Below are positions 25,601 to 58,100 of a stretch of DNA of 64,000 bases, piece by piece. The translations under genes were made by a program, and so were the position numbers. Each line of letters begins with the position of its first letter. The stretch's first letter is position 1. The notes below the pieces were generated by a model. That model searched no databases and had not been told where the DNA came from. It was given only the letters and a program-made list of their open reading frames with translations. The DNA is from Aplectana chamaeleonis (lineage: Eukaryota > Nematoda > Chromadorea > Rhabditida > Cosmocercidae): the NCBI GenBank assembly GCA_029168955.1, contig JAPDOI010001346.1, forward strand, positions 62,001 through 126,000, given 5' to 3'.

Positions 25601-28600
25601 AAGTCACTCGGAAACACTAATTTTCCGTGATACACTCCTCCTGAAAACTTTTCCATTAAAATTCCCGACAAGAGACGAACAGGGAGTTGTATGAAACATA
25701 AAATTAGGTTGATGCATAATTATGGAAAGTTTTCATTACAGCGTTTTTCTTTAAAAAAAATTGGCGTTTCGTCTTCAATATTTATATAAATAATCCTCAA
25801 TATTTAGCTGGAAAATGCGTCTCGAAGATCACACCCATACATATTCGCCATATTATGTTATACCACTACGAGAAAGATAGACCGCAGCCCAGTCATTTCG
25901 CGATCTCAACGAACTTTTTGGCGGAGGAGCAAATACTGACAGGACAGTACAGAAGTGGTTTATTCGCCTTAAAGGCAAGGTCCGGCCAAATTTTGACACT
26001 ACCGAAATTCGGGTTAGATAGATTGGGCTGGCCTAGATGAACATCGTCTGAACGTTTATTTATTTATTTATTGATTACGCTACATAAGGTAGACGTTATA
26101 GAAAAAATCGTTCATTCGTATATCAAGCAAATTTAAAGAGAAGATACAGTGACTAACTTATATACACACAAAGCATAAATGTAAGGAACAGATGTCATAT
26201 GAGAAGAGTACATTTTCTCAGAAACTTAGCAGCTCCCCTCTCGAAAGTCGCTTGAAAGACCGGAAGCAGGGGGGAATGAAGGGAATATTGGAGCTCAACG
26301 AAATAAAAACGGAGCCAGCTCTGCACGTAAAACCATGCAGACTGTGCCCAGTCCTTGGTGTGTCGTACAAGATTTTCTCTGAATTACCCCTGGTCCTAGA
26401 AGCCTGAAGTCTGAAAAATTTCGTTACATCAGTTTCAACAACTCCGCTGAGAATTTTAAAAACCATACAAACGTCATTTCCCTTTCGTCTTGATTCTAAA
26501 GTGTGCAGACTACAGTCCTGATTTCTCGAAAACGAGTCAGGGATACTATCGTATCGGAATCCTACCATTCTTAAAAATATTTTTCTCGTAAAATTTCTTT
26601 GCACCTTCTCTAGTAAGTTTTTTTAAGATGTGGGCAAAAAAAAGGAGTCCCGCATTCCATAAGAGGGCGTACATATGTCGTATACGCTTTTGTGAGAACT
26701 TTTCGGTCACAAACAGACAATGCCTTAAAAATGTGGAATGTTTGTAACGACGCCTTCTTGACCAGAGCCTTGTAATGAAGAGAAAAGTTTAAGTTGCAAT
26801 CATACTGGAAACCCAAGTCCCAGACATGAGACACTGAAACCAGAGTGTGGTCTTCGAGCAAATAATTATGAGGAAGAGTAGATAGCCCTAGCCTCTATAG
26901 CTTCACAAAGTCTGAATCCTTACCTCTAGAGAAAACAGCCTTTAAATCAGGGATTACGGTATTCACAGCGTAATAAGCATTGCCAGAACGACCGACATTT
27001 ACACTGCAGTTCTGAAGAATACGTGGACGATAGCTAAAACCTAGACGGTGGACACACTTTCCTGACTTTTCTGACACAGCGGTTGACGGAAGTGGCTGGA
27101 ATAACTCGAAAAATACCGGGCTTTACGCAGTTTTCGCATGCTCCTTGACACCACCTGTAGCATGCGCACCGATTCAGCGGAAAATCTCAAAATCGAAGTG
27201 CTGCCCGGACTCTGCCATTAAATCAGACGACACTAGTTTGGAGGATAAAGTAGGAAGAGGTGGGCCATCGGATTTGGATGATCAAGCACTTCTGACAGCC
27301 ATGGAGAAGGACGGAAGCCTAATATTGCGAATGTTGGCTGAAGACTTTGATGTCATTAAATCAAAACCGTTCGACGCCAGAAGAAGCTTGGAAAGATATG
27401 GCTGCCGAGATGTCGTACGTTCGTGCCGTGGCCGTGTGGAGGAAACAACATCAACTCCGTGCAAACCGACATCAACCCCTCCATGAAGAGGGTTTTTGCT
27501 ATGGGAGAGATGCTGGCTGGCCTCAGCTCTCCTAAGGATTCTCCTACAAAGGGCCGGCGTGGAGAGGAATCCAGGATCCGCTCAGAAGTACCCATGCGCC
27601 ACGTGCGGCAAGGATGTCACATGGAGTAAAACAAGCATCCAGTGCTTCGGATGCCAAAGATGGGTGCATCTCTCCTGTTTGGGTCTCAGTTCTGTGAGGC
27701 ATCATAACTATGCTTTCCGCTGTGTTTTGTGCTCTTTACCTACCCAACTCTGATTCCTCTACCTCCAGTCGCCCCCTTTCTATTGTACATATAAATCTCA
27801 ATGGCCTCCGTGCCAAACTATCTGAGCTCTCTCTCTCTCTTTGCTCGCCCTCACCATCCAGATGTTATCATGGTTCAGGAAACCAAACTCTCCCCCTCTG
27901 CTACCTCCTCTCACCCTAATATTCCCGGCTATACCGCAAACCACGCTACAAATTCGGCTCTCGGCGGAGAAGTTTCTACTTTTGTTCTATCCACTCTCCC
28001 TTCTCACCTTATTCCCAATGTTCCTAAGGACGGTACTCTTGAGTATATCCCCATACATCTCCCACTCAAAACTCCCCTATCTATTTTCAACATTTACATC
28101 CCACTACTACATCATGCCCCCATCCTATAATCCTATCCCTCTTGTAAAGCAGCTCAATGACTGCACCCTATCACCCTCAGTCATCTTTGCGGGCGACTTC
28201 AATGCTCACACCTTTTGCTCTTCGCTCAAGTCTGATGCTAGAGGAGAAGACGTCGAAGAATGGGCGGAGAAGTGCGACCTGGGTATCTTAAACGATGATC
28301 AGCCCACTCGCCTCCCTGCCAACGGCCGATCTTCCAGCCCAGACATTTCGATCGTTTCTTCTAACCTTTCTAGTGCTTGCTCATGGTCCACTTCTACAAC
28401 TCTGTCTAGTGACCAAATCCCCATTTTCGTCCATACTGACCTCTCCAACTCTCTTGCGCCTTACACTGATATTCGCCAACGTTCATACCTTAATTTAGGC
28501 CTTGCAGACTGGGGTCTGTTCAGAGAGGTTGCGCTTCGCCAGGCAGCTGAATATCCATGGAACGGCGACGTGCACCAGAAAGAGCGTCACGTATTTGACG

Positions 28601-30440: not shown

Positions 30441-32421
30441 CGTCAGAAAACCCTTCGCCGATGCTCCAAATGAAGTCAATCTGCAAAGATGGCACGATTC
30501 ACATCAAGAACGCCTCCATCTGTTGCGCGAGGAGCACACCCAGTTCGTCCGAGGGTATCTGGAAAGAGCGGCTATCAATCCCATTTTGGGCACTGTGCCG
30601 CCTCGAGTCTCTGAGTCTGAGTATCAGCTGTGTAGACGTGCCAGATGCACTCTTGCATCGTTGCGCTGCCAGCACTCAACGTTCCTGAGTCCTATGCGAA
30701 CAGGATCGACAGCAGCACTCCCAACCAGGGATGAGCGGAAATTTTTTTCTGAACTTCGGAAATCGGAAATCGGAAGGACCTTCACAATTTCGGAAATCGG
30801 AATTCGGAAATCGGAACGCCAAAAACCATCGGAAATCGGAATGCGGAAATCGGAAATACATTCAGTGAAGTTCTTAACGCCCCCCCCCTGGTGACTGCGC
30901 GTACCGAAAACTTGAACTCATCCTTCTTTACTGAAAGTTTTCATGCAAACACAATCAACTCTGGCTTTGTGAAAAGCGAAAACGGACCTCGAATCCGAAT
31001 TCAGCGCCTAAAAATAACCCTCTGAGGGATTTGGCCAAGGAGAGCGTAAAAATTTTTATCTCGTGAATATTTCCGATTTCTTCCGCATTTTCAGGCTTTT
31101 TTTCGGAAATCGGAATTCGGAAATCGGAAGGCCAAAACCCATCGGAAATCGGAATTCGGAAATCGGAAACCGGAATTCCGCTCATCCCTGCTCCCAACGC
31201 TTGTCCGGGCTGTGGTGGTACCGGCCACAATACTCTACACTTATCCAACTGTCCAAAAAAAAACACAACATTAACTCCCATGGATCTTTGGACGAATCCG
31301 ACGCTGGTCGCCCAGTTTCTGGGCCTATAGCAATACTCTCTCTGCAAAGAAGAAGAAGGAAAGGTATGGAAATTGGCTGGATGGGTGCCCCATGAGCTCT
31401 CCGACAGACTTAACTGAACACTTTCGAATTTTCACCGATTTACTGCAGCGAAACGAACAAACACCATTTTTGAACAATCTTGTCACTGTGGATGAGTCAA
31501 GGCTTCTCTTCAAGATGTTAAAAGAAAAAAGATCTGCGTTTCGCCAGGTATTTCCCGAAAGGAATACCGAAAGACGTGCACTGCAAGAAGGCTATGTGGT
31601 GTGCGTTGTGGGACAGAGGCGAAATCATCCATTAGGAAATCATTTCAAATGGCATTTGTTTTTGGTTTAACGACACAGATGAAAGACAACAATGGAGAAT
31701 TCCTGACATAAATGGCAAACGGCAATTCAACATCAACAGCGACGTCTATCTGGCTCAGTTTGATCGCCTTAACGCTGCCAACGAGGCGAAAAGACCGCGC
31801 AAAAAAACCACATCGTGTTCCATCACGATAACACCGTCCGCATGTTGAGCGCCGTGTAATCGAATCCATCGCCAATAAGGGATGGAATCTGCTCCCACAT
31901 CCGTCAGACTCACTGACAGAAGCACCAACGGACTATCATGTCAATCGCTCTTTGAAAAACTGGCAAACAAACAAAGTCTACGACGAGTTGGATGGCTTGG
32001 TGGCTAATGTCAAAGCAGGGATTGCCTCCAAGAATTGTGACTTCTCCGCACGTGGATTCGACCGACTGGCAAGCAAATGGGAAGAAGATCTTGAAGTGGA
32101 TGGTGACTGTGCTCTCGAATGATCATTTAAACATGTTTTGATTAAAAATTGTTATGGTTTTAATTGAACAAAAATATTTTTCAAGAAAAACTTTCCATAA
32201 TTATCAATCAACCCAATACAAAGGATCAGAATAAAAAATAGAAAAAAGTACAGTGAAAGATTACCTTCATATGGAGTACTCGGCGCACCGAAGATGATGT
32301 AGTGCCACTCGAGGATGTTTTCCTGTAATGGTGCGGCGCGCACGTGTGGCACCGGTTCTTTCAACAGCCTAGCATAGTCCTTCTTTAATCTGGCTGTAGC
32401 CGTAACCGATGCCACCACCAT
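22654..32421 (-). CDS. ube2j2: UBE2J2-type ubiquitin-conjugating enzyme E2, tail-anchored
   Basis: Five exons on the minus strand join without frame conflict: 32265-32421, 25483-25640, 25298-25423, 25123-25235 and 22654-22786 (stop TAA). Introns are GT-AG. The product is 228 residues, against 259 in human UBE2J2. The UBC fold begins [30 protein letters not shown] leads into the core; the noncanonical TPSGRF motif replaces HPN as in this family; catalytic Cys89 lies in [20 protein letters not shown]. Exon 5 encodes a C-terminal membrane anchor (about residues 196-217, [18 protein letters not shown]). The known family role is ubiquitin transfer at the cytosolic face of the ER in ER-associated degradation. 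An acceptor-like CTTCCAG lies 8 nt upstream of the ATG and could be a spliced-leader site. Intron 1 (6.6 kb) is filled by nested transposons. Confidence 0.95.
22913..23252. mobile_element. hAT-type MITE in UBE2J2 intron 4
   Basis: The ends are CAGGGTTGAGCAGGGT and the complement CCCTGCTCAACCCTG. The flanking 8-mers AGCTTAAC (22905-22912) and AGCCCAAC (23253-23260) match at 6 of 8 positions. CAGGG-type termini and an 8-bp duplication are hAT hallmarks. It is non-coding. The frame at 23192-23464, which overlaps the right end, looks membrane-like but has no exon support. Confidence 0.8.
23253..25122. other. Intron 4 remainder of UBE2J2
   Basis: No further UBE2J2 exon is needed: exon 4 ends with AG and exon 5 begins with T, forming one serine codon. 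A short inverted pair near 24695 and 24893 (CCTCCTAGGTC against GACCTAGGAGG) suggests one more degraded inverted-repeat element. Confidence 0.55.
26051..27200 (-). mobile_element. 5'-truncated CR1-like LINE inside mariner
   Basis: The 3' end is marked by TTTATTTATTTATTTATTGA (26058 onward), an (AAATA)-type tail on the minus strand. Upstream on that strand are RT thumb/C-terminal sequences: [36 protein letters not shown] (26610-26861) and [18 protein letters not shown] plus [19 protein letters not shown] (26218-26604). The clade differs from LINEs A-E. The 5' boundary is approximate. Confidence 0.8.
27401..31357 (+). mobile_element. LINE A: PHD finger, endonuclease, RT retrotransposon
   Basis: Bounded by an 11-bp target duplication, GGAAAGATATG (27390-27400) and GGAAAGGTATG (31358-31368), and ending in an AAGAAG tail. 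In order: a C4HC3 PHD-like finger (about 27597-27740, [10 protein letters not shown] and [12 protein letters not shown]); an apurinic-type endonuclease ([17 protein letters not shown], and SSDQIPIF where the usual catalytic His is Gln); and an RT (YADD at about 29750). Stops and frameshifts occur at about 28120, 29100, 29400 and 30062. A (GA)n run lies at about 30390-30438. A hAT-type MITE sits at 30726-31190. I assign it to the Jockey/I superfamily. Confidence 0.93.
30726..31190. mobile_element. hAT-type MITE inside LINE A
   Basis: The ends are CAGGGATGAGCGGAA and TTCCGCTCATCCCTG. A perfect 8-bp target duplication, CTCCCAAC, lies at 30718-30725 and 31191-31198. Subterminal regions are tandem TCGGAAATCGGAATTCGG. 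LINE sequence resumes exactly after the duplication. Confidence 0.95.
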
Positions 32422-39322: not shown

Positions 39323-42300
39323 CTAGTCCCCATCCGACAAGTCAATACATTCAGGCTGCGCAACAGGAACCTTTGGGCGCGAAGATGGGTGCAAGTCATG
39401 AGTTTCTGGGGCAGGAGCACGCCTTTTCAACAAGTTCTCTCTTGGGTGATTTGCAGGAACTAGAGTTCTCGGCGTCAGCACCATAGCTGCCCTCGTGACT
39501 TCCCTAAAGTCCTGAGCAGGAGATCCATCGGAACCACATTGCATCGAAGATTTGTTGTGCGATGACGACGATGCTGAAGATCCCGCAGAATCCTTAGTCG
39601 GTCTGCTGTCCAGATCATCCATGATGTTTGGAAACATAGACATAAATCCCGGACACTGAAAAATTGCACAGCATAATCATATGAATGAAGACTTGATAAC
39701 TTGGTCAATCATACCGCACGATTCCACGCTTTACTTTCAGCAGCCAACCTTCGACGCAGTTGAAACGGCGCATTGGCTACGCCGGCAGCATACGAATCCT
39801 CGTTCATGAAGCTATGCAGTCCAACCTGAAATCCGGGTGATTAATGAATGTAGACCAAGAAAAGGCTTTTTTGGAACTTGTCTGATTCGTATCAAGAAGT
39901 TTTATTTCGCTCCGGCGACACTCGGTTGGTTCAAAAGACACGCAGCGCCGCCACGCGCCGCTAACGCGAACTAGCCCCACTGGCCTGTGCAATTCGGAGA
40001 GGGAATGTAACGTCTCTACCTCCTATAGTTGTACACGAACGAAAGTTCGTTCGAAATTTCGTCGAACGAAATTTTTTCAAATTTCGTTCGTTCGAAATTT
40101 TTTCGAACGGAAATTTTTCAATTTTCTTTCGTTCGAAATTTCGTCGAACGGAAATTTTCTAATTTTCGTTCGTTTGAAATTTCGTCGAACGAAATTTTTT
40201 TAAATTTCGTTCGTTCGAAGTTTTTTCGAACAAATTTCGAAATTTTTGACAAATTTCGAAAAAAATCGAAATTTCGATTATTTTCGAATTTCGTTCGTTC
40301 GACCTCCGAAATTTCGAAAGTTTTTCGAAATTCGTTCGTTCAAAATATTTTCGAACAAAATTGTTTCAATTTTCGTTCGTTCAAAATTTTTTTCATTTTT
40401 CGTTTGTTCGAAAAGATTTCGAACGAAAAAATTTCGATTTTCGTTCGTTCGACATTTTTTCGAAATTGTACAACTATACTACCTACAGTAGCGAACAAAA
40501 GTCTTCGGACGACGACTTCGATTTCCTCGTTGAAAAATTCCCGCAGTCAGATTCAGCAACTTCTGTTATCATCAAGGCCTCAACAATATACACGGAGACC
40601 TTGAGGATAGCCAATGTCTGTTCTGGGATTGGATTTTTCATTGATAAATTAAAAGAGTTGGAAAACTCACTTTTGCATAATGGATACTCTTATTTTATGA
40701 ACGAATCATCATACCACCATTTGTTTGACTACCGACATGGTTCGGCTTTATCGATCCCATTTTGATCTGAACTCATTGGTTCTTCTCCCCCCCCCTCACT
40801 CTTGAACTCTTTTACCTTTTTTTTCACCATTTTCATACCTATTATTTCACGTAATATCCCATGTAGCTCTTTACCAACAGTTCTCGCTCAATTTTCTCTT
40901 CTCATTACTCTTTCTCATCGACAATTATGTTCCTCACTGAGAAGCCTCGGCAAAACTGTTTGGTAAAGTTCGTCTGCTGGTAGAGGCGAAACGGATTTCA
41001 TCAACTTCTATTTCCTCTACATTTATCTTTCCATCTCTTTCTTTTTTCGGACAAGGCCTTTCCGCGAATAATGCTTTTATACATATCTTGGCATGGCCTT
41101 AGCAAAACTTGATGAAACTTTAGTATGTTATGGGGCATCACAACTCTTGCTTTGCACGAACACAAGATGATATTTTGATGGTGCAGTTTTTTAATATAGA
41201 ATTTATTTCTGATTTCGTGGTAATATTTGAAATTTCGACCATTTCCTCAAAACATGGCTATTACAATTCCAAACCCGTGGCAGTTATTTGCCATTCTGAG
41301 GCCTTCGGGACCGTTGTATACCCTTGAATTGATCTCTATCAATGTTTTTTTTAGAAATGAAGTCGAAATAAAATTAGGCGATATTGCACCTATCAAGTAT
41401 CTCTCGTTGACGTTATAGAAAAAGAGCGAAATTCATGTACCACTTGTACTTTGTCGAAGCTTATGAAGCTCATATTTTGGAATGGTTATGGGACGACTAA
41501 TTTTAAAGAGATGAATTTCCAGAAAATTAACTCCAACCTGTTCAATTTTCGGTCTTCAGAGAAATTCTGATTAGAGACTATTTTCTCATAAAGTTATACA
41601 ACGGTTCGAAGACCTTCGAATGGCGAATAACTGCTACGGGTTTGAAATTGTAATAGCCATGTTTTGAAGGAACAGTTTTGTGGTAAAATAATACCACAAA
41701 ATGATAAAGAAGTTCGAGGAGTTAAGGTCTTTGAACACTGCACCTTAAAAACCTAATCTTGTGTGTGTGTGTAAAGCAAGAGTTGTGATGCCCTATAACA
41801 TACTAAAGTTTCATCAAGTTTCGCTAAGGCCAAACCAAGATATGTATAAAAGCATTATTCGCGAAATGGCCTTGTCCGAAGACTTATGTTCGCTACTGTA
41901 CGTGACTTAATGCGTCTCTCGAGTTTTCCAGAAAATATTTATGGCTTTAGAATCCTTTTACACGTGTTCACGATACAAACTGCCTTCGAGCTTCACCGGG
42001 AATCGAGAAGTCCAGCGCACATTGCAACCCCAACTACGAAAAACGGCTTAAAACAAGCTCTAAATATCCTCGTCCGGCCCTAAACTTACATTAAAGTTTC
42101 GAGGCGCCACGCCCACCCCCCTCAGCGACCATCGATCGGAGCTAATCACAGAAAAACGGACTTTTAGGGATTATCAAAGAAATACAATCTATTTCACCGT
42201 CTTCGGCTTGTAGGCAGTGTTCACGATGATTCTCGTTCCCGAGTTTTCCACTCAGAACAAGACGCTGGCCAGCAAGTGTCGCCAAGAAGAAACGACGAGA

Positions 42301-43671
42301 AACGCACTCAAACGTCTTATTTCAGTGACATTATTGTCTGACCTAGACTAGTTGTCCGGCTGGATGAACATGTTCGCGGTGGTTGTGCCCGTTGAAAAAT
42401 GGAAACATTCTAAACTGGAAGATTATTTTATGCAAAACAATATTAGCTAGGGTCCGAAGCAAAGAATAGAGCAACAGAAAGAAGATAATTGCAAAGGACG
42501 GGACCACAAAAGATTTGACAGTCAAAACAAACAGTTCCTGTGAGAGTAAAGGAGCGGGTGGAGAGAGAAGAGGGTCTCGTGTTCTTCTCGCGCGTTCTCT
42601 CGATTTCTTCGTCATTTCAGTTCTACTCGGGAAACAGACAATCGATTTAGCAATAATCTCAAAACTGAAGATTATCGTGAACACTGCCTTTAACAAGAGT
42701 TATAAGATAGTTCACCGAAAGTTGCAGTCCTAGATATATATCAATGAAGAGCGGTCGGTTTCAGATCGAAATGCATGAAGCTCATTGCAACCCAACCGCT
42801 CAAGCCGAAGGCGAACGCGCTGCAATGTGATTGATTCATATTGATCTCCAACTGACCGCTTCTCAGATCTGCAACTTTTGGTGGACTACACTATCGCTCC
42901 AGCCGCGAAGCGGCTGGAGAGGTTTGGTTTTGCCTAGGCCTTGTGATCACTTAGAATTTTATAAAATACATCCTTCACTTGTGTAGCCTCCAATCAGCTC
43001 AAAGGGTCGAAACAGTGATGTGTCCAAATGGTTCCCTTCCATACCTCCCCTATTAGGATAAATTGTACTCTTTCACTCGGCAGCTGGCATATGGGGTGGT
43101 CTACTTAACAACCAGCTGATACAAATAATCCTATCTGACAGAGTACTGTGCTTTGAAGCGAAATTAATCGCGAACGGCGACTAAAAAACAAACCAGAATA
43201 GCAGCCACGGTCCATCCTGGATTCCACGATTCGGGATGGTAATCAGAAATCGACAAGCACAGCCTCACACCAGTCTGGAACCTGGAAAAACGATTGCATG
43301 ATCTGCGACATGCATGCATGTTGAAAAAACAAACCTTCCATTAGGCGTCAGCATGCAGATCGCTGGAGGCTTCCACGGGAAATCCGGCTGGAAAACCATT
43401 TTACCGTAATAATAGCCACCTAAAAGAGGCACATCATACAACAACAATGGGGAACATGTATCAAGCTGAGCGTCATATTTTTTAGACATTTCCCACCTTC
43501 ATAAGGAGATTCTGGTGATCCCTTGATGACATAGTGCCAGTCCAGAATATTTTCATCGTCTGGAGTGGCTACGATTCCCTCAATGGGTTCACGGAGGAGG
43601 CGTTCGAAGTCACGCTGCAGGCGTCGAACCGCAAACTGGCTCGGGTTCGTAGGTGCATTAGGAAAATCCAT
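39323..43671 (-). CDS. UBE2J2-like E2 paralogue without membrane anchor
   Basis: Five exons join in phase: 43497-43671 (ATG), 43335-43419, 43194-43281, 39715-39825 and 39323-39655 (stop TAG). The product is 263 residues. UBC fold: RRLQRDFERLLREPIEGI, NILDWHYVIKGSPESPYEGG, the family TPNGRF motif, and catalytic Cys95 in [19 protein letters not shown]. Exon 4 (VGLHSFMNED...QLRRRLAAESKAWNRA) aligns with the anchored paralogue's GLLSFMND...[10 protein letters not shown]. Exon 5 is Ser-rich, contains LLKRRAP, has no hydrophobic segment and ends ECIDLSDGD. The E2 core looks intact; the lack of an anchor implies a soluble, possibly nuclear enzyme (inference). Exon 1 ends after YE with one base of Gly, exactly as in the gene at 32421. 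The exon 3 donor (GTTTGT) is weaker than the others. Confidence 0.88.
40024..40478. mobile_element. hAT-like element of TTCGTTCG repeats, copy 2
   Basis: The ends are TATAGTTGTACACGAACG and the complement ending GTACAACTATA. The flanking 8-mers are CTACCTCC (40016-40023) and CTACCTAC (40479-40486), 7 of 8 identical. The inside is the same TTCGTTCGTTCGAAATTT array as at 18819. The 191- and 134-codon frames over it are repeat artefacts. Confidence 0.85.
40486..41898. mobile_element. Tc1-like TIR element with fold-back arms
   Basis: TA-flanked ends: CAGTAGCGAACAAAAGTCTT at 40486 and the complement ending at 41898. From 41048 to about 41340 and from about 41590 to 41885 the arms are inverted copies (GCGAATAATGCTTTTATACA, ATGGCTATTACAATT). 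The left TIR is interrupted: TTCGGAC occurs at 40504-40510 and again at 41046-41052, consistent with a later insertion of about 535 bp between them. No transposase is recognised. Confidence 0.82.
42212..42689. mobile_element. TTAA-type MITE, family T1, copy 2
   Basis: The ends are AGGCAGTGTTCACGATGA and the complement of AGGCAGTGTTCACGATAA. TTAA is intact at the right (42690-42693) and degraded at the left. Lies in intron 3 of the UBE2J2-like gene. Confidence 0.82.
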
Positions 43672-46123: not shown

Positions 46124-49100
46124 TTAAAAGTTCCTAAAACAGAACATATCTAGAGCATGGAAGATTATTAATGCATTCTAAAACTCACAATAAATCATTC
46201 GTGGCGCTGCTTTTTGAGCCAGTTTGAGGCGGAGGCCCTCTTGTCCTTACCTAAAAAATTCTTTCGAAGCAAAGGTTATGAAAAATAATTTCTGTCACAT
46301 TTTCTGCGTGAGGCCAATGCTTTACTACGGAGCCGCTCGTAACTGACGTAGCAGCGCCCCTCGCAAAATGTGGCAATAGCCTAGACAAATTACGCCATTG
46401 TGCCAAAGTTACCCCCGATACGATGACTGAGAGGGACACATCGTTTATCAATCAACAAACTAAACGCAAGCATAACTATTATTAAAATAGTGAGAAACAC
46501 TCATACCGCGGACCCTCCAGGAGGAGGTGGAAGTAAAGGTACACTGCCGCCTACAGTGGCTGGTTGTGGACGTGTTCGAGCTGGCAGAGGCTGACCATCC
46601 GGGCCTCTCTTCTAAAATGTTGTTTCTTCGACAATTTCAAATGTATTAAGGGTAAAACTTTAGCATAACAGGTAGAGAAGCGCTTTGGGAGAAACATGCT
46701 GGGGCAGCAACAGAGAGACTATTCTGGCGACTTACAGAGCAATACTTCAGCCTGCAATGGAATATGCGGCACAAGTGTGGCAGCACCTGGGCTGAGATTC
46801 ATGAAAGCTGAACCCAGGGTCTAAGCAGGGTTTGGTTGGAAACGTTCGCAAACAAGCGATTCATCATCGCTGGGTTTGGTCAGAACTGGGCTACGCCTGG
46901 GTCCCACGTGACCGCATCTCCTATGCGGTGGTTTGGTTCGGCTTGGCTAGTTACGTTTTCGACGTGCAGAAAAATACACTGTGCAATCACGCTAAACACG
47001 AAATCCCACGACATTTTGCTTTCTCGCTGGGGTTTTTGACAAAATTCATACATTTGTCGCTTTTTTGAATTTTTCTTTCAATCGGCTAAGAACTAAGAAA
47101 ATAAGAAACAAAAAAAAACAATCAATGAACAATGGAAAAAAAATGAAAAAAGTGCTGAAAATTGTTTCGGAAACCTTAATGCGAGCGCCGCAATTACACG
47201 TCAACTCCGGCGATTCAAGACGAAACGTGTTGGTTCCGTAACCAGTCGTGATTGGCCTTTGGTGTATCGCTGATTAAATGTTGGCTACAGTTTGGTCCCA
47301 GCTGGACCAGCTAACTAAACCAAACCCTGCCGGGACCCACTGCGTTCATGAATCCCGGCCCCGGTGTCAGATAGCTCTTGGATTAAACTGCAGCGTGTGC
47401 AAACCGCTGCTCTAAGGATAGCTACTGGCTGTGCAAGGAGCTCCCCAATAAAACATCTACACGCGAAGGCCTCCATATGGTCAGTCAAGAAGCACTATGT
47501 ACTCCAGACATAGCAGATGTATATTAATGTGCTAAAGCAACCGAATCATCCGACTAGAAGAATAATGAAGGCCGCCAGAGAGAGATCTGTAAGGACGCCC
47601 TTCGCAGACGCTCCTCGTAAAATGGATGTATAGTGATGGGCAGCCTCCAAGATGGAAAGGCGTCTTCTGCGCGAGGAGCATACCCAGTTCGTTCGAGGAT
47701 ACCCTGAGAGGGCGACTCTGATTCCTATTCTGAGAGGAGTGCTACCTCGGTTTTGCGAGTCCGAGTCTCAACTCGACAGGCGAGCCATATGTGATCTGGC
47801 CTTGCTACGATGAGGTCACTCTATTCTGCTGTCTTACGTTAAGAAATCGACAATAACCGACCAGACGCATGCCTGGACAGCGGTAGTCCCGCACACGATA
47901 CGGCGCACTTCTTCTTCTTCTTCTTTGCAGCCACATAGAGGGTTTTGTCATAGGCGGAGGAACTGGGCGACCAGTAGTGGATTCGTCCATAGATCCATTG
48001 GTGTCAGCGTGGTAGGTTTCTCCGGACAGTTGAATAAATGTGCGGTATCATGGCCGACGGTACCCTAGTCCGGGCACACATCAGATTTGCTGCTGTCTAT
48101 CTTGCTGACATAAGACATTAGCATTGTAGAGTGACCACAGCGTAATGATGCGAGAGTGCATCTCGCCCTTCTTCCGAGTTGAGACTCTGAGGTGCAGACG
48201 GGGGGCGGTATATCTCCTAGTATAGGATTTATGGCCGCCTTCACAAGATGACACCGTACGAACTTGGTGTGCTCCTCGCGCAAAAGAAGGAGTCGTTCTT
48301 GCTGTGAGTCGTGCCAACTTTGCAAATTGACTTTGTTCGGAGCATCGGCGAATGGCTTTCTTATACTTCTCTCTCACGGGGTTGAGCACTCTCCACGACG
48401 GGTGATTTGGTTGCTTTATAATGTTAATGCGGAATTGCTGGGCCTGGAGCTGACAGTGCTCCTTCACTGGTAATAGACGGGTCTCAGCATGCAGGTTCCC
48501 TGATTGGGGAACTCCTTGCACATCCGGTGGCGATACGGAGAGCAGCATTTTGTACCCGTTGTATCTTTGTCCAGGAGGATTCTGAGACGAGATGCTGCCA
48601 AACCGGTGCGGCGTACTCCAGGGCGGGCTGAAGAATTGCCTTATACGTTGTGAGTATAGTCTCCTTGCTGGTACCCCACGAAGTGCTGCCCATGGCCCTG
48701 AGAACGTTGAGCTTAGCTTTAACGACTGCCTGCTTCTGCTCGGTATTCTTATGAAACTTCAGTGACGGATCGAGCACAAGACCGAGCAGCTTTGGAAAGC
48801 GAGCAGCAGGCAAACGGTCTCCATCCCACACGACATCCGGATGAGCGCTGTGCTCGGATGGGTCCGTCGTGAGAACGGACACTGACGACTTGGCTGCAGA
48901 GATCCTTAGCATCTTGCGGTCGAAGAAGCTCTTCAGTGTGATCAGGTATTCGTTGATCTTATTGGCGGCCACCAGTAAGTCCCGATCTCGACACATGATT
49001 GTTATGTCATCAGCATACGCGACGACCTTGATGTCCGGTGGAGGCTCAGGCATATCTTCGAGGTACAGACCGAGGAGGGTTGGCGATAGAACCCCGCCCT

Positions 49101-52100
49101 GAGGGACTCCAGCTGCCATAGGAATACTGTTGGAGACATGGTTCTGAAACATGACTCTTGCCCGCCGACCTTTAATAAAGGCCGATATCCAGCGCTTCTG
49201 CCAAGATGGTATTGACGACTCCAGTATGTTGCTTGACAGGACTCCAAGGTTAACCGTATCAAATGCCTTGGTGAGATCCAACGCAACAGCTACAGTTCTC
49301 AATGGCTTGTTTAAGTTGAACCCGTCGATAGCAAAGCTGGTAATTTCTAGCAACGCCGTAGTTGTGGAATGTAGCCTCCTGAACCCATGTTGAAACAACT
49401 GCTTCTCGTTGTGCTCCGCTAGATCCTTGACAATGAGCTTTTCGGCCACCTTGGCGAAAGGTGACATCAAGCTAATAGGACGATACCGATGACTGAGGTT
49501 TGCCAGGCTTGGGCAACCGGATGACGTTGGCTGTCTTCCAGTTTTGCGGAATAGTGCAAGAGCTGAACGAAGTGTTAATCATATCAACGATGAGCGGAAG
49601 GATCTCAGTCGGGAGTTTCTTCAGTGCAGCAGGACAAATGCCGTCCGGACCGACAGCTTTGGAGTTCCGCATGTCCTTTATAATCTTCTCTACTTGCGCC
49701 ACAGTGTACGCATCGGCCGTGCTCATGAGCGGGAGGCGGCACAGCTCTCTTGCTGTCACTCTATTTTGCGGACCTCGCCTTGTACTCGTGACGAATAAAC
49801 TTTTACCGAGAGAGTAGGCGGCTTCCTTTCTTGACTTGGAAACGTTATTACCGAACTCAATAGTGGAGATGGTGGCTGGCAAGCTCTTTCCCGATAGTTT
49901 CCGAAGCACCTTCCAAGTAGCTCCACTGTCCGTCTTGAAATTCAACTGTACTGTGAATTTTTCCCACTGTTCTTTCTTGTGCTGGTCGAGATCTTTTCTG
50001 ATCTCACCATCCAGCTGAGTGACGACAGGATCTAGATGGTCAACTGCTCTTCTGGCATTTCTAGTCGATTTTCTGAAGAATTTCTCTGGTGACGTTTGGA
50101 TAGAACGTCTCAACTCGGCCAACAGGGATAGCCGCCTTCATGGCCCTGCCAATTGCATCAGATAAGTGATGCTCCTTCTGGTGCACATTGCCATTCCACG
50201 GGTAATCAGCCGCTAGGCGTAGCGCAACCTCACTGAATAGGCACCAGTCTGCTTGGCCTAAATTGAGATAAGAACGTTGACGAACACCAGAATAAGGAGC
50301 AAGAGAATTTGAGAGATCGATGTGCACAAAGACGGGAACATGATCACTAGACAATGTTGTTGAGGTAGACCATGAGCAAGCGTTGGAAAGGTTGGAAGAG
50401 ACAAGAGTTTTGTCTGGGCTAGAAGATCGGCCGTTGGCAGTGAGACGAGTGGGCTGATCATAGTTTAAGATGACCAGGTCGCCCTCCTCAGCCCATTCTT
50501 CGACTTCTTCTCCTCTAGCATCAGAACCAAGGGACGAGCAGAAGGTGTGGGCATTAAAGTCGCCCGCGAAAACAACTGATGATGAGAGGGAATAATCGTT
50601 GAGTTGTTTGAGAAGAGGAATGGGATTGTAGGAGGAGGGGCATGAGGTGGTAGGGGGAATATATATGTTGAAAAGAGAAAGGGGTGTTTTAAGAGGGAGA
50701 TGGATTGGAAGGTACTCGAGAGTACCATCCGTGGGGGTGTTTGGTATGAGGTGGAAGGGGAGAGATGATGAAACAAAGGTTGAAACCCCTCCGCCAAGAG
50801 CTGACCTTGCAGCATGGAAGGCAGTGTAGCCCGGGATATTAGGATGAGGATAGGTAGGGGATGGAGAGAGCTTGGTTTCTTGAACCATGATCACGTCTGG
50901 ATGGTAAGTACGTGCGAAGAGAGAGAGCTCAGAAAGTTTGGCACGAAGGCCGTTGAGATTGATATGTGCAATGGAAGGAGGGCGATTTGAGGAAGAGGAA
51001 TCAGAGTTGGTAGGTGAAGAGCATAAAACACAGCGAAAAGCAGAGTTATAATGCCTCACAGAACTGAGACCCGAACAGGAGAGATGCACCCACCTTTGGC
51101 ATCCGAAGCACTGGACGCTAGTATGTCTCCAGTTAACATCATTGCCGCACGTGGCGCATAGGTACTTCTGAGCGGGTTCAAGATTCCTCGCCACGCCGGC
51201 CCTTAGCAGGAGAATCCGAAGGAGAGACGCGGCCGGCCAGCACCTCTCCCATGACAAAAACCCTCTTCGCGGAGGGGGTGACGTCGGTTTGCATAGAGGT
51301 GATCTTCTTTCCTCCACACTGCCACGGCGCGAACGTACGACATCTCGGCAGCGCACTTATTCATTTGCCCGAAGAAACCTTCCTTAAAGGCTGTGTTCAC
51401 GATAAATATCACACAGAGTTCGACCCAAAAACGACGTTTTTGGTAGTGTGGAAACTAATAGTGAAGAAACAGCGAAGAAAAACGTTCAGAATAAGCTAAA
51501 ATAACGGTTTACAACGTTCAGGATGGACGAGCTTACTGGCCCTGCTAGTTTCCGCAGACGCTTAGCAAGCAAGCGCTAATAGCAAAGTGTGCGCGAATCG
51601 ATCAGGCTGGACGCGGCAGAGTTGCTTGACAAAATGCCATTGAAAACGTGCGCGGCGCCACAAGCTCCTCCGAATGGGGGGGGGGGTGGACCGGGATAGG
51701 AAGGCGCAACGGGATGACTTTCAAAGCTGCTTTTTTAGATTTCTAATCCGTTTTCGCTGATTTTTTCGACCCTATCCCCTCCAGCATCTGCAAACTAAGG
51801 GTTTCATACTGAAACCTCCCAAACGAGATTTATCGTGGACACTGCCTTTAACACAATGGACCTTTGGACGAATCCTGTAATGGACGCCCGGAGCCTCAAC
51901 CTAAGACAAAAAACCACTTCGAGGCTGCAGAAGAAGAAAGAGAAAGCGCTTAGGATAGCACACGCTCCAGCTTCTTCTTGTTGTTGAAGACAACCTACAT
52001 GCCCAAGTGTGCAAGAAACGCCTCGTGTTCAGTTAGAACGTTTAAAAAAGCTGACAACTCACTCCTATATTAATGGAGATGGTCTGACCCTCTTTGAAGG

Positions 52101-55100
52101 CAAGATCGAGACTTGGCTGGTCTACACTGCTCGCTTGCTCGAACTCAGCCGACTTCTCGATATACTTGAAGTGATCCTAAAAAACTGATATTGGAACAAT
52201 CTCGCGATAACATTAAATGTGGCCCTGAGTCAATCCAAGTTCGACATGGTTGACAGCAGCAGAGGATCCGAGATGCTCAACCTACGCGTGGTGGATCTGT
52301 GGAGTCGACTACCAAGATCAAGGAGACTCATCAAACGGGCATCAACAACTCCACGAGGAGTTTTTTCTGTATGGGAGTGCAAATGGCTGGTTGCTGCACT
52401 CCTTCGTATTCTGTTGTTACGAGCTGGCATTGAGTGGAACCCGTGACCGAGAAGCAAGACTCCACGTTATCCCTGTCTTCACTGTGGATTATCTGCTCAA
52501 CATGCAAGCCTTCAGTGCGGTGGTTGCATCGGCTGGGTACATCTCAAATGTCCGGGGTTGACCGGCTATAATGACTATGCTGATGCTTACTGTTGTATAA
52601 CTTGCTCTAACTCTCCCCCTAGTGTTCCTCTTCATAGTCTAGACATTTTTCAACTTAACATCAATGACCTGCGTGCCAAACTTGCTGAACTCACATTATA
52701 CATTGAACGCTTTCATCCAGATGTCATCCTCCTTCAGGAGACAAAACTTAGCCCAACATCCACCCTACCCCGCCTTCCCGGTTATACATCGTACCACCTT
52801 CCCCGCACATCCCATGGTGGTGGCGTTTCCACATTTGTAAAATCCACCATACCCTCTCACCCTACTCCTATTCCTAATGATAATGTTGTAGAATGTATCG
52901 GTGTTCATGTTGTATTGCAAAGTTGCCCCATGGATATTGTTATTATTTATATTCCCCCTTCCTCCTCATGTCCTAATTCGTTTGACCCCACTCCATTTTT
53001 ACATTCTGTACACTCTGCCCTCCCTTGATCTTCTGATGTAATGACTGGCAATTTTAATGCTCACTCTTCATCCTGGTTCTCCTCTCTAGATCCTGATGAC
53101 AGAGGTGAACTACTTGAGCTTTTTGCTGAGGATTGTGACCTTGTTGCCATTAACGAGGACGCCCCCACTCGCCTTCCTTCCACAGGCAGGCCGTCCTCTC
53201 CGGATGTCAATTTGTATCATCTTCTCTTGCTGTTTCTTGTAACTGGTCCACTGCTATAGCTATGGCCAGCGATCATGTACCCATATGTGCTTCATTGGAT
53301 TTGTCTCTCAATAGTAATCTCGCACCTTTCTTTGGCTCTCGTAGCAAACTGTATACCAACTATCGTAAGGCTAACTGGGACCAGTTCAAGGAGGTGTTAC
53401 TCAGCCGGGTAGCCTGCTATCCGCTTACCGGCTCCGTTCATGAAAAGGAAAAATTCATCGCTGACGCCATATGCAGTGCCTTTCGCCATTCCTACAGGGC
53501 GTGTGAGAATGTTTCATCCCAACGTTCCCAAGGATTTTCTGGAGCTGATCGAATTACGGGACGAGAAGCGCCGAGCTGATCCTGCGGATCCCAGTATTCA
53601 ACAACTATCAGATGAGATCACCAAAAAGCTTAATGATTATATCCGGACGCGGTGGATGGAGTTCACTGAATCTTTGAATTTCTCAACTGATGCAAAGAAG
53701 ACCTGGAGCAATCTTAAGCGGTTGTCTGGGAAGAAATTGGCAGCGGACCGCAACATGCTTGAGTTCCCTTCGGGAAAATTTGAGTCCGGCTTTAAGGCTG
53801 CATTTCGACTTGAAAAACACTTTGCTTCAGCGACGTCACGCCGTGATCGATCCAACAGGCTCACTCTCCGGTCTATAAGGAAGCTCAGCCGACAAGACGT
53901 ACCTGCCATAACTGCCTCTGAGATGTCTTCCCTCATCAAGTCCATAAAGAGCTCGATAGCCGAAGGACCCGACGGCGTGTCAGCCGTCCATCTCAAGCAC
54001 TTGCCGGAGCAGTTCCTCGGATTACTTTGTGATCTAGTCTACTCGTCTTTCAGCTCAGGTGTCATTCCCACTAGATGGAAGCAAGTAATTGTTCTGCCAA
54101 TCCTCAAGCCTGGCAAACCAGAAGATCAAGCAACTTCGCATCGACCCATCTCCCTTTTGTCCCCTATTGCTAAGTTAGCGGAGAAATTCATCAACCCGCA
54201 CCTCCAAGAAGCATTACGTCATAACTTGCATTAACATGGCTTCAAGAAGGCGCACTCTACCATGACGGCACTCACGTCCCAGCTGGTAGAAGTATAGTCG
54301 TGGCGGTTGACTTAACCGCTGCCTTCGATAACTTCAGTATCCCACTGCTGTCCAAATCGATCCTGGACTCTACTATTCCTGACTGGTGCAAAAGATGGAC
54401 AGATAACTTTGTCAAAAATCGTTCCGTTCGTGTGAATTTTGATGGACACTTATCGAAGTCTGTGCCCCTGAAGGCAGGCGTTCCACAAGGAAGAGTTTCA
54501 TCTCCCAGCCTGTTTTCTTTGTATCTGTCTGATGTGCCGAAGCCATCATCAAACATCCACTTATGTCTATATGCGAATGACATCACCATTATTTGTACTG
54601 ACCCTGTCATCGATCGAGCCACTGCTGAGATGAATAAATACCTCGTCAGTCTGGCTAAGTTCCTGGAAACGAAGCAGTTAAAGGTCTCTCTAATCAAGTC
54701 CAGCGTTACTTTGTGCACTACAGCGACTGCTGAACACAAGCTGCATCCCAATGTTCTTTGGGAAGGAAATATGCTGCCCTTATCAAAACACCCTCGACTT
54801 CTCGGTGTATTCCTGGACCCGTCACTACGTTTTCATGAAAACACACGAGTTCGAGCTGCTGCTGCCAACACACGTAACAACATTCTACGTTCGCTGGCAG
54901 GCGCTACATGGGGCAGCTCTAAGGAAATTTTGAGAACCACCTACAGGGCTATGGTGCAGCCGGTGCTGGAATATGGAGCCCCAGTTTGGTCAAGACACCT
55001 GTCGGAAGCCTCTTGGAGCAAGCTTCAGCGTGCACAGAACACTGCTCTACGCGTGATCACTGGATGCCCTAGATCCACACCGGTACCTCACCTACATGAA

Positions 55101-58100
55101 GAGTGTTCGCTACTACCTGTAAAGCAGCATTGTGAACTCCAGTCGCAGCAGTTCCATGTTGGCATTATAAGGAATTCCACACACCCTAATTTCCCATTAC
55201 TGTCATCTGGTCCCCATTTCCGACATATACGCTCGTCACTTCATGCTGCAATCTCTGTCTTGGATCGTCAACGTTGGGCGACGTCGGAGCTCAATCGCGT
55301 CAGACTGCTGCAAATGGAGCACACCCGATTCGTCAGAGAATACCTTTCCAATGCTCCCCTAAATCCAATACTTGGTGACGTGCCCCCGATCGATAGCAGC
55401 GAATCGGACCTACCCAGACGTACACGCGTCATCCTGGCAGGTCCACGATGTGGACACTCCTAATACCTCAAGGCCTTCATCCATAATCGACTCGTCGATC
55501 CCTGACGAATGTCCTGACTGCCACAACCCAGGTCATGATTCATTTCATTTATTTTCATGTCCTGCAATGCCGACTTCTCTAACAGTTATGGATATGTGGA
55601 AGAACCCGTGCGATGTGGCTGCCTTTTTACACCTATGAAGAGAAGCTCTATGTGGCCGATAAGAAGAAGACAGCAGCAGATGGGAACAATATCGTCTTCT
55701 TCTTCTTCTTTGCAGCCACGTCGAGAGTTTTGTCATAGGTGAGGAACTGGGCGACCAGTAATGGATTCGTCCATAGGTCCATTGTGGTCAGTAGACTTGG
55801 GACCGAATCGAATAATTATTCGAATAATATTCGAATAATTCGAATATTCGAGTATTCGAATATTCGATTCATTCGGGAATTTCAATTTTGGGGTTTATTC
55901 GAATATTCGATTTATTCGGGAATTTAAAATTTGGATTTATTCGAATATTCGATTTATTCGAAAATTTAAATTTTGGATTTATTCGAATATTCGATTTATT
56001 CGAGAATTTCAATTTTGGATTTATTCGAATATTCGATTTATTCGAGAATTTAAAATTTGGATTTATTCGAATATTCGATTTATTCGAGAATTTAAAATTT
56101 GGATTTATTCGAATATTCGATTTATTCGAAAATTTAAATTTCGGATTTATTCGAATATTCGGAAAAAGTGCCTCACATTCGAATTAGACAAGACCTATTT
56201 CCTTTGAAACAGAAACCCTTCAAAGAATCTTTTGCAAATTGAGCTATCCATTTTGTGAGTAACATTTCCGCTGTTCGTTCTTGTGTGCAGGTCTCCCGTT
56301 GCGCGCTGTACACAAGCACCAACATGCATATTGATTAAGGGCGGTGCTATCCGAAGTTGCCGCAACAGGCTGGACAGGTACCCAGAAAAATCAAAACAAG
56401 TTACTTGTAATATAACTGTAACTTACTTGAATGTCTCAAGTAACTTACATTTATATTACATGTAACATACATTTATGTTACATGCAACTTAAATTTATAT
56501 TACATGTAAGTTACACTTATGTTACATGTAACTTACATTTATATTTTCATTATGAAGGCCATAACGTGACGCAGACGACACGCGACGCAGAGAGCGTGTT
56601 CCAGACCACAAACTACGCGAAAAAATGCTGTGCAGGGCCTTCCATGCTGGTGTGGGGCCAAATTACCTCAAACTGGGGTAGTTGAACCAACATCAGCCAG
56701 TCGTAAGCCTGACCCGCGAGTGCGTCGTACATTTCCCTTGGAAACATCTTTTGGTCGATTTAAGTTACTTGCGACTTATATTGTGCCGTTTGAGTTACAT
56801 GGAACATATCGGAGGCGCACTGCACCCAGTATCCTCTCAGAAATCGAAAACAAGTTACTTGTAATATATCTAAGCTGATGTAAGTTACCTGCGACGTATC
56901 TCGAGCCATTTAAGTTGGGGCCTCCTAAACAGGCAGCGGCGACCGTTTATCCCATCGTTTTTAGCACTGAATACGCAAGAAGTTGGCAAGTTCAAACTTG
57001 TTGAAACTCGCAGAGCATTTCTACTGGCAAAACAATGAGATGGAACACGTATGGATAAACAGTCGCTGCTGCCTGTTTAAATTTTCTCATTTAAGTTACA
57101 TGCAACATATCGACAGGAAACCGCTGGCAATTCGCCTCCAAAATGTTACCTGTAACTTAAATGGCACAATAAAAGTCGCAAGTAACTTTACATCGGCTTA
57201 GATATGTTACAAGTAACTTGTTTCAGGTTTTTATGTTACAAGTAACTTGTTTTCGGGCTTTTATGTGACAAGTAACTTGTTTTCATTTTTCTGAGTAGCC
57301 GTCGCCCATTGGCGCTGGGCCGCCTCCGCGAAATCAATAGTGTGTTCTCCTGCTCCCATTATTTTAGGCCGTCGCCGCCGTAATGGTGGATAGAGGGTAT
57401 CCACGAAAGTGTGGCTGCCCCCTGTCCCCATTGTGGGAGCTAGTTACAGTTCACCTCCGCACTGCCGTTCAGTCCGTAAAGTGCACCTGATTGCGAAATC
57501 GTGTTGCGGCGCGGTTGAGAGTATTCTCGAACAAGCGATGGGGATCACCCGGGCGCTTTGCCTCTGGTGCCCGAGTGATCTCACCGCCCGGGTGATTCCA
57601 CATCCCTGTCTGAGGATACTCGCAAACCGCGCCGCAGCACGATTCTCGCAATCAGCGCTAACTTTGCGGACTGAACGGCAATCTGAAGTTAACTGTAAGC
57701 CAATCTCCTCCGATTTTCAACCTCCGTCACTGGTCTCCTTTCTTTGAATTTCGTAATTGATTCTGTATACACTTATACGAAACGCAAATATAAGAATTAA
57801 ACATGAGAAGCGAAGACAAGTTATGCAACTCAAACTCACACTCTGCAGAAATTTCTCTCGCCGCGCTTTTTCTCGTCTTCTTATCGAATACTCTGCTATC
57901 TTGATGCTCATCACCTTTTCGAATAATTTGCTTTGAGGCAATATGTGTATCGTCGATCACTGGGCGAGAGATAGCCGCGACGCAGCGACCTAACTTGATA
58001 TCACTTGATCGATGTTCATGACCATCATTACCTCCTCGCTTGAGTGCGTGCCACTTGTGTTCGTCGCAGCGATCTCTCAGCCACCATCGGCATGGAATTC

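What the first reader, a model, noticed from the sequence alone, without database searches (positions are those of the whole stretch)
39323..43671. UBE2J2 paralogue that has swapped its membrane anchor for an acidic tail
The E2 core, including Cys95 and the family TPNG motif, is intact, yet the last exon encodes a Ser-rich tail with LLKRRAP and a terminal ECIDLSDGD and no hydrophobic segment. UBE2J2 enzymes are normally ER tail-anchored. IDLSD resembles a SUMO-interacting motif, so this could be a soluble E2 redirected to other substrates or to the nucleus. The exon structure is read from the sequence; the function is inferred.
Basis: partly seen in the sequence, partly recalled or inferred. 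Interest (0 to 1): 0.8.

Follow-up and report, generated by a model that had tools for sequence, protein, structure and literature searches.

The report
Anchorless nematode ubiquitin enzyme, conserved tail
A roundworm's DNA carries two neighbouring copies of a ubiquitin-attaching enzyme, one anchored in a membrane as usual and one of an old line without the anchor that ends in a short motif which may bind the protein tag SUMO, so that it could be an unusual link between two protein-tagging systems.

Summary
Five minus-strand exons (43671-39323, all GT-AG) encode a 263-aa E2 with a UBE2J2-type core, Cys95 and TPNG intact, and no transmembrane segment. It is not a recent swap: the window also holds the ordinary tail-anchored UBE2J2 (32421-22654), and trees put the two in separate clades that parted before strongyles, Pristionchus and Caenorhabditis did. 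The soluble clade includes the C. elegans protein that I take to be UBC-15. "Acidic tail" is wrong: residues 172-263 have 11 acidic and 11 basic residues; only the last nine are acidic. In six strongyle proteins with complete ends these nine are 76% identical, against 17% in the linker; with two strongyles that lack the motif added, 41% against 17%. Relatives end in VIELSDGE, VIDLTDD, DVVTLD or DVIVLD, fitting the published SIM consensus; the window's CIDLSDGD fits only loosely, and 10 of 30 clade rows have tails of their own without it. A basic KR motif precedes it. I favour a soluble, probably nuclear E2 drawn to SUMO-bearing partners. SUMO binding and location are inferred. No paper describing this was found in the library searched.

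The parts
43497..43671 (-). exon 1 of the soluble UBE2J2 paralogue, start codon at 43671
   Evidence: aligned to orthologues
43335..43419 (-). exon 2, carries the TPNG motif (residues 83-86; the last codons run into exon 3)
43194..43281 (-). exon 3, carries the catalytic Cys95 codon at 43259-43257
   Evidence: position counted from the exon coordinates
39715..39825 (-). exon 4, C-terminal part of the E2 fold (VGLHSFMNE...); follows a 3.4-kb intron
39323..39655 (-). exon 5: last helix, Ser-rich linker, basic motif, terminal SIM-like motif, stop
39413..39433 (-). LLKRRAP, basic motif (possible nuclear localisation signal); stretch 227-235 is 57% identical among six strongyle rows, 40% among eight
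   Evidence: position counted from exon 5
39326..39352 (-). terminal ECIDLSDGD, SIM-like; 76% identical among six strongyle rows, 41% among eight
   Evidence: position counted from exon 5
32265..32421 (-). exon 1 of the ordinary tail-anchored UBE2J2 (tandem paralogue)
25483..25640 (-). exon 2 of the tail-anchored UBE2J2
25298..25423 (-). exon 3 of the tail-anchored UBE2J2
25123..25235 (-). exon 4 of the tail-anchored UBE2J2; begins in the phase of intron 4 of the soluble gene
22654..22786 (-). exon 5 of the tail-anchored UBE2J2, transmembrane segment [19 protein letters not shown]
46534..60945 (-). NECAP gene pieces upstream (60945-60517, 52176-52063, 46611-46534)
   Evidence: tblastn; full gene model not built

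Best explanation
The gene encodes a soluble E2 ubiquitin-conjugating enzyme of an old nematode clade that arose by tandem duplication of UBE2J2 (the clade of the C. elegans protein I take to be UBC-15). It keeps a UBE2J2-type catalytic core but not the ER anchor. A linker predicted to be disordered carries a basic motif and ends in a hydrophobic-acidic motif. Most likely the basic motif takes the enzyme into the nucleus and the terminal motif binds SUMO, as the similarly built DAXX motif IIVLSDSD does, so that SUMO rather than a membrane brings the enzyme to substrates or SUMO-bearing E3 complexes. Shown: gene structure, core, absence of an anchor in the model, clade, recurrence and constraint of the terminal motif in part of the clade. 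Inferred: expression in this species, SUMO binding, nuclear location, substrates.
For: Gene model and core; fold of the Oesophagostomum orthologue. Orthologues with the same kind of end. Clade: 30 rows with support 98/98; 30 partly different rows with 100/99. The anchored copy is in the same window and in the other clade. Constraint, mean pairwise identity with gaps as mismatches, six of the 12 strongyle rows of the first tree (those with complete ends of this kind): core 0.82, linker 0.17, KRRA stretch 0.57, spacer 0.25, last nine 0.76; with P0003 and P0006 added: 0.77, 0.17, 0.40, 0.18, 0.41. Terminal hhXh with at least two acidic neighbours in the last ten residues: 12 of 30 clade rows, 13 with the window's Cys allowed, and 4 of 12 outer rows, against 0.1-2.9% in shuffles of the tails of the 16 strict matches; 2 of 188 proteins with a hydrophobic tail stretch. 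Outer rows P0128, P0129, P0136 end KKKGPDIITID, KKKDPDVITID, KRKGPDVITID, close to AKRIPDVVTLD of Pristionchus. SIM consensus and DAXX: PMC8616421, passages. Tail disordered in the AlphaFold2 model of the Oesophagostomum orthologue.
Against: The window's own motif (C-I-D-L) fails the strict consensus. Ten of 30 clade rows have tails of their own without it: five Elegans-type Caenorhabditis, two strongyle-clade rows and three others; C. bovis P0211, outside that count, ends EDVKTVVE. The six-row constraint figure was taken on rows chosen for complete ends and falls to 0.41 with two more. The one C. elegans row ends in a hydrophobic stretch (19-residue mean 2.13), which I judge to be a diverted isoform without proof. 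Rows are related, so counts are not independent. SIM-like strings are common and many are false (PMC8616421, passage). KR motifs are weak evidence of location. The short tails matched no solved chain. RNAi of ubc-15 is marked '-' three times in a CED-1 screen (PMC9388098, passage). No expression data were at hand.
Confidence: 0.45

Rival explanations
1. Same soluble UBE2J2-derived enzyme, but the terminal motif docks to something other than SUMO (an E3, a chaperone TPR domain, another beta-sheet partner).
For: The motif recurs but no binding is shown. In several rows it ends in hydrophobic-Asp at the very C terminus (DVVTLD, DVIVLD, DIITID), slightly like the EEVD ends that bind TPR domains (recalled).
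Against: In the strongyle rows with the motif, P0010 and Mesorhabditis three or four residues follow the hydrophobic core, so a fixed C-terminal carboxylate is not the shared feature; hydrophobic core plus acidic flank is.
Confidence: 0.3
2. A soluble cytosolic UBE2J2-type E2 in which loss of the anchor is what matters; the tail is a loosely kept remnant.
For: Linker 17% identical; the soluble copy is less conserved than the anchored one in 21 of 21 species pairs; ten clade rows lack the motif.
Against: Last nine residues 76% identical in six rows, still 41% against 17% in eight; similar ends in distant rows.
Confidence: 0.13
3. A membrane-anchored form is made after all, by read-through splicing from exon 4 to the TM exons of the downstream UBE2J2.
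For: Phase-0 junctions match at 39715 and 25235; Ostertagia P0178 and Trichostrongylus P0121 gene models join the two genes; the C. elegans row P0020 ends hydrophobic.
Against: P0178 also takes in NECAP, as merged predictions do; five other strongyle models end in the exon-5 kind of tail. Exon 4 belongs to the E2 fold and intron 4 is only 59 nt, so there is little room for a TM exon inside the gene after the core; hydrophobic ORFs from 39714 down to 32422 are at the level of a crude reversed-sequence control, 9 against 8.
Confidence: 0.07
4. A decaying or unexpressed duplicate.
For: Faster evolution than the anchored copy.
Against: Open frame, intact splice sites and active site; kept in the clade V nematodes sampled, core identity 0.77-0.82 among strongyles.
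Confidence: 0.03

Closest known systems
UBE2J2 / yeast Ubc6 (tail-anchored ERAD E2)
   Same: Core and active site: 2f4w E 7.7e-50; the Oesophagostomum model matches yeast Ubc6 (first by E-value) and 2f4w (TM 0.96 by target length); Cys and TPNG kept
   Different: No tail anchor; tail with basic and SIM-like motifs. Ubc6 as tail-anchored partner of Doa10, which also sits in the inner nuclear membrane: PMC8698790, passages
C. elegans UBC-15 clade (P0020 and Caenorhabditis relatives)
   Same: Same clade with strong support; KR-type motif near the end of P0016, P0017, P0018, P0022 and P0012
   Different: Elegans-type tails are long and Ala/Pro/Gln-rich and lack the terminal motif; one has a stretch of mean hydropathy 1.84 (P0016), and the C. 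elegans row P0020 ends hydrophobic (2.13). That P0020 is UBC-15 is recalled and by elimination (P0166, named CBN-UBC-26 by its source, falls in the anchored clade), not read from a record
SUMO-targeted ubiquitin ligases (Slx5/Slx8, RNF4)
   Same: Would join SUMO recognition to ubiquitin transfer through a SIM (PMC8698790, PMC8161396, passages)
   Different: STUbLs are RING E3s with SIMs; this is an E2 without a RING
DAXX SIM IIVLSDSD
   Same: Hydrophobic core followed by S-D-x-acidic; relatives have VIELSDGE and IIDLSDDE
   Different: Binding to SUMO is measured for DAXX (PMC8616421, passage), not here; DAXX is a transcription cofactor. That its motif is at the protein's very end is recalled

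Membership tests
UBE2J2/Ubc6 tail-anchored E2 | UBC core closest to UBE2J2/Ubc6 | tested here: met
   on the window's protein; on the Oesophagostomum orthologue
UBE2J2/Ubc6 tail-anchored E2 | catalytic Cys and TPNG in place of HPN | tested here: met
   Cys95, TPNG at 83-86
UBE2J2/Ubc6 tail-anchored E2 | C-terminal transmembrane anchor | tested here: not met
   highest 19-residue hydropathy of the tail 0.42; so it is filed as a UBE2J2-derived soluble paralogue, not as a UBE2J2
UBE2J2/Ubc6 tail-anchored E2 | location on the ER and role in ERAD | not testable with these tools
   needs cell biology
soluble nematode J2 clade (UBC-15 side) | tree position apart from the anchored copies | tested here: met
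   98/98; 100/99
soluble nematode J2 clade (UBC-15 side) | tandem with the anchored copy and/or NECAP | tested here: met
   window; elsewhere contigs of equal length, consecutive locus names or fused models:
SUMO-interacting motif | hhXh or hXhh (h = I, V, L) with acidic flank | tested here: inconclusive
   (hhXh only): window has C-I-D-L, strict no, relaxed yes; 12 of 30 clade rows meet it strictly
SUMO-interacting motif | binds SUMO | not testable with these tools
   no complex prediction or assay at hand
SUMO-targeted ubiquitin ligase (E3) | RING domain | tested here: not met
   UQ_con is the only Pfam family reported

The most novel reading that the evidence does not exclude
Nematodes evolved an E2 that reads SUMO itself: a UBE2J2 whose membrane anchor was replaced, after an old tandem duplication, by a nuclear signal and a terminal SIM, so that SUMO rather than the ER membrane decides where UBE2J2-type ubiquitin transfer happens. 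One metagenome relative, P0102, carries several SIM-like stretches by eye (VEVIDISDE, IIDTVDLD, SVIVLD).
Probability: 0.33. Interest if true: 0.75.

Novelty: new variant of a known kind. Interest (0 to 1): 0.55.

Why it matters
UBE2J2 is studied as a membrane enzyme of ER quality control. A family that kept its chemistry but exchanged the anchor for a SUMO-like address would show that an E2, not only an E3, can be steered by SUMO. It could be tested in laboratory worms; in the three papers found that name ubc-15, the two whose passages I read use it only as one E2 in RNAi sets. It would also separate what the J2 catalytic core does from what its membrane does.

Tried and rejected
Recent anchor loss: rejected, the anchored copy is next door and the clades are old. 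TM exon hidden in the 3.4-kb intron: ORF 42343-42699 looks hydrophobic in part by eye, but using it would drop exon 4, part of the E2 fold; downstream hydrophobic ORFs equal the crude control. Search of the PDB by tail sequence for known SIM peptides: no hits; such short queries say little. Setaria P0177 as a clade III member of the soluble clade: its branch is 3.94 and its place cannot be trusted. First tree: 71 rows, 68 proteins picked by hand out of 174 then held, plus the two window proteins and P0121 cut in two. Second tree: eight long rows dropped (P0102, P0046, P0052, P0068, P0150, P0122, P0013, P0015), five rows added, 68 in all; the soluble clade stayed. The six-row constraint figure left out six strongyle-clade rows (P0003, P0004, P0006, P0009, P0030, P0121); P0003 and P0006 were put back as a control. 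The protein searches listed 120 hits each out of 264, 2886 and 6126, and the last two scored only part of the candidates, so a group missing here is no proof of absence. tRNA and Rfam scans of the window: nothing at their thresholds. The galactosyltransferase fused downstream of UBE2J2 in P0222 and P0181 gave no tblastn hit in the window at 1e-3. The species was not identified: the closest soluble core seen was 77% identical over 158 columns (Ostertagia); the host genome could not be searched.
Full report
What is there. On the minus strand of the window, five exons (43671-43497, 43419-43335, 43281-43194, 39825-39715, 39655-39323) with four GT-AG introns encode 263 residues and a stop. Pfam reports one domain, UQ_con. 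The best solved relative is human UBE2J2, 2f4w, E 7.7e-50 over residues 13-173; the catalytic Cys95 and the TPNG that UBE2J2 has in place of HPN are aligned.

No anchor, and no acidic tail. The tail's highest 19-residue hydropathy is 0.42; the anchored neighbour's is 2.54. Residues 172-263 hold 11 acidic and 11 basic residues; only the last nine, ECIDLSDGD, are acidic. An AlphaFold2 model of the Oesophagostomum orthologue P0001 (20-row alignment) has ten-residue means of 78-97 over most of residues 11-180, with one weak block, 52, at 101-110 beside the active site, and 43-59 from residue 181 on. Its nearest solved structures are yeast Ubc6 and human UBE2J2.

The partner next door. tblastn with anchored nematode UBE2J2 proteins finds a second gene on the same strand. 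Its exons (32421-32265, 25640-25483, 25423-25298, 25235-25123, 22786-22654) give 228 residues ending in a transmembrane segment. Two of the four introns of each gene fall at the same place and phase: after PYEG (phase 1) and after AWNRA/AFNLK (phase 0); the other two differ. Upstream lie pieces of NECAP. The order NECAP, soluble J2, anchored J2 recurs: the Ostertagia model P0178 fuses parts of all three; the Trichostrongylus model P0121 fuses the two E2s; Angiostrongylus P0030, Diploscapter P0021 and C. bovis P0211 fuse NECAP with the soluble E2; Toxocara P0179 and Aphelenchoides P0044 fuse NECAP with the anchored E2. Necator (RB195_016753 and 016754) and Pristionchus mayeri (06294 and 06293) have the two E2s under consecutive locus names, and in C. 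angaria, C. auriculariae and Mesorhabditis the two are listed with contigs of equal length.

Ancestry. A tree of 71 E2 cores puts the window's soluble protein in a 30-row clade (98/98) with strongyle, Pristionchus, Diploscapter, Mesorhabditis, Auanema and Caenorhabditis proteins, including C. elegans P0020, and the window's anchored protein beside Necator's at 95% identity. A second tree of 68 rows, without eight long branches and with five rows more, agrees (100/99). I take P0020 to be UBC-15: this is recall plus elimination, since P0166, named CBN-UBC-26 by its source, is in the anchored clade. The duplication is therefore older than the split of these groups. Soluble rows from Panagrellus and from unnamed metagenome sources may push it further back, but their branches are long and their places open. 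In 21 of 21 comparisons among seven species with both copies, the soluble core is less conserved than the anchored one.

The terminal motif. Among six strongyle rows with complete ends, mean pairwise identity (gaps as mismatches) is 0.82 in the core, 0.53 in the last helix, 0.17 in the linker, 0.57 around KRRA, 0.25 in the spacer and 0.76 in the last nine residues. These six were chosen out of 12 strongyle rows. Adding the two others that have tails of their own, P0003 and P0006, both of which stop soon after the basic motif, gives 0.77, 0.50, 0.17, 0.40, 0.18 and 0.41: weaker, but still above the linker. Whether those two are cut models or true losses is open.

Ends of relatives: VIELSDGE (Oesophagostomum, Necator, A. 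ceylanicum), VVELSDGE (A. duodenale), IIDLSDDE (Haemonchus), VIDLTDD (P0010), VIDLDDD (Mesorhabditis), DVVTLD (Pristionchus), DVIVLD (C. angaria, C. auriculariae), D(I/V)ITID (P0128, P0129, P0136), SVIVLD (P0102). Counted as hhXh with at least two acidic neighbours in the last ten residues, 12 of 30 clade rows have it, 13 of 30 if Cys is allowed for the first hydrophobic as in the window, and 4 of 12 outer rows. The 17 clade rows without it: four have tails under 20 residues (P0004, P0014, P0021, P0030); three have, in my judgement, diverted models (P0009, P0020, P0121); ten have tails of their own (P0003, P0006, P0013, P0016, P0017, P0018, P0022, P0023, P0024, P0122), of which P0023 (NAITLD) is a near miss. 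P0020, the only C. elegans row, ends in FILLCFPPVFFCFSSIFPVFSY, mean hydropathy 2.13 at its highest; if that were the main product, the C. elegans member would not be plainly soluble. Of the eight outer rows without the motif, six have tails under 20 residues and one (P0052) a hydrophobic tail. Shuffles of the same tails reach the motif in 0.1-2.9% of draws for the 16 strict matches. Of 188 proteins with a hydrophobic tail stretch, two reach it; that set includes a few rows of the soluble clade, such as P0016, P0020 and P0121.

What it may do. The SIM consensus is a hydrophobic core, hhXh or hXhh of I, V or L, often flanked by acidic or phosphorylated residues; DAXX's is IIVLSDSD (PMC8616421, passages). 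Strongyle relatives match that layout down to the S-D that follows. With the KR motif ahead of it, the simplest working picture is a nuclear E2 drawn to SUMO-modified partners. Yeast Ubc6 already serves Doa10, which sits in the inner nuclear membrane too, and SUMO-targeted ubiquitylation is otherwise described for RING E3s with SIMs (PMC8698790, passages). A table in PMC8161396 lists 'MmUbc7', footnoted there as UBE2J2, among E2s used with RNF4 (passage); I am not sure of that naming. This gives a plausible route but no proof.

What is in print. Three papers of the library name ubc-15: PMC8408604 and PMC9388098 (passages) use it in RNAi sets; PMC9300945 was seen in the listing only. PMC9898758 and PMC11354881 (passages) hold both UBE2J2 and SIM but not together. 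Searches that gave no description of a soluble SIM-bearing UBE2J2: (96 papers, 20 listed). Most subscription journals and preprints are not in that library.

Verdict. A real and unusual E2, old rather than new, best filed as a UBE2J2-derived soluble paralogue. The SUMO reading is the best-supported mechanism and remains to be tested.

Noticed in passing
window 40045-41903 (intron 3 of the soluble gene): A 41-base repeat array (40045-40237, 4.7 copies) and beside it an element with 119-base inverted arms (41046-41164 and 41762-41880, 92% complementary): perhaps a non-autonomous mobile element in the 3.4-kb intron.
   Followed up: partly
P0102 (metagenome protein, 319 aa): A UBE2J2-like protein without an anchor whose long tail holds several SIM-like stretches as well as a terminal SVIVLD; organism unknown.
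   Followed up: partly
P0178, P0030, P0021, P0211, P0179, P0044: Gene models from several nematode groups fuse NECAP with a UBE2J2-type E2. This hints at an old polycistronic unit, or at read-through transcripts.
   Followed up: no
window 39655-39653, Cys154 of the soluble protein: By the alignment it stands where UBE2J2 has Asp153, a residue reported (as a personal communication in PMC7704249, passage) to matter for efficiency; the five strongyle relatives aligned also have Cys there.
   Followed up: partly
P0177 (Setaria digitata), N-terminal E2: A very divergent J2-like E2 fused in the model to the anchored UBE2J2; possibly the filarial counterpart, but its branch is 3.94.
   Followed up: partly
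P0020 (C. elegans), last 22 residues: The only C. elegans row ends in a hydrophobic stretch unlike its Caenorhabditis relatives: an odd isoform, or a membrane-bound variant.
   Followed up: no
P0222 (Dictyocaulus), P0181 (Bursaphelenchus xylophilus): Models fuse a UBE2J2-type E2 to a galactosyltransferase domain (PF01762), suggesting another conserved neighbour; no hit in the window.
   Followed up: partly
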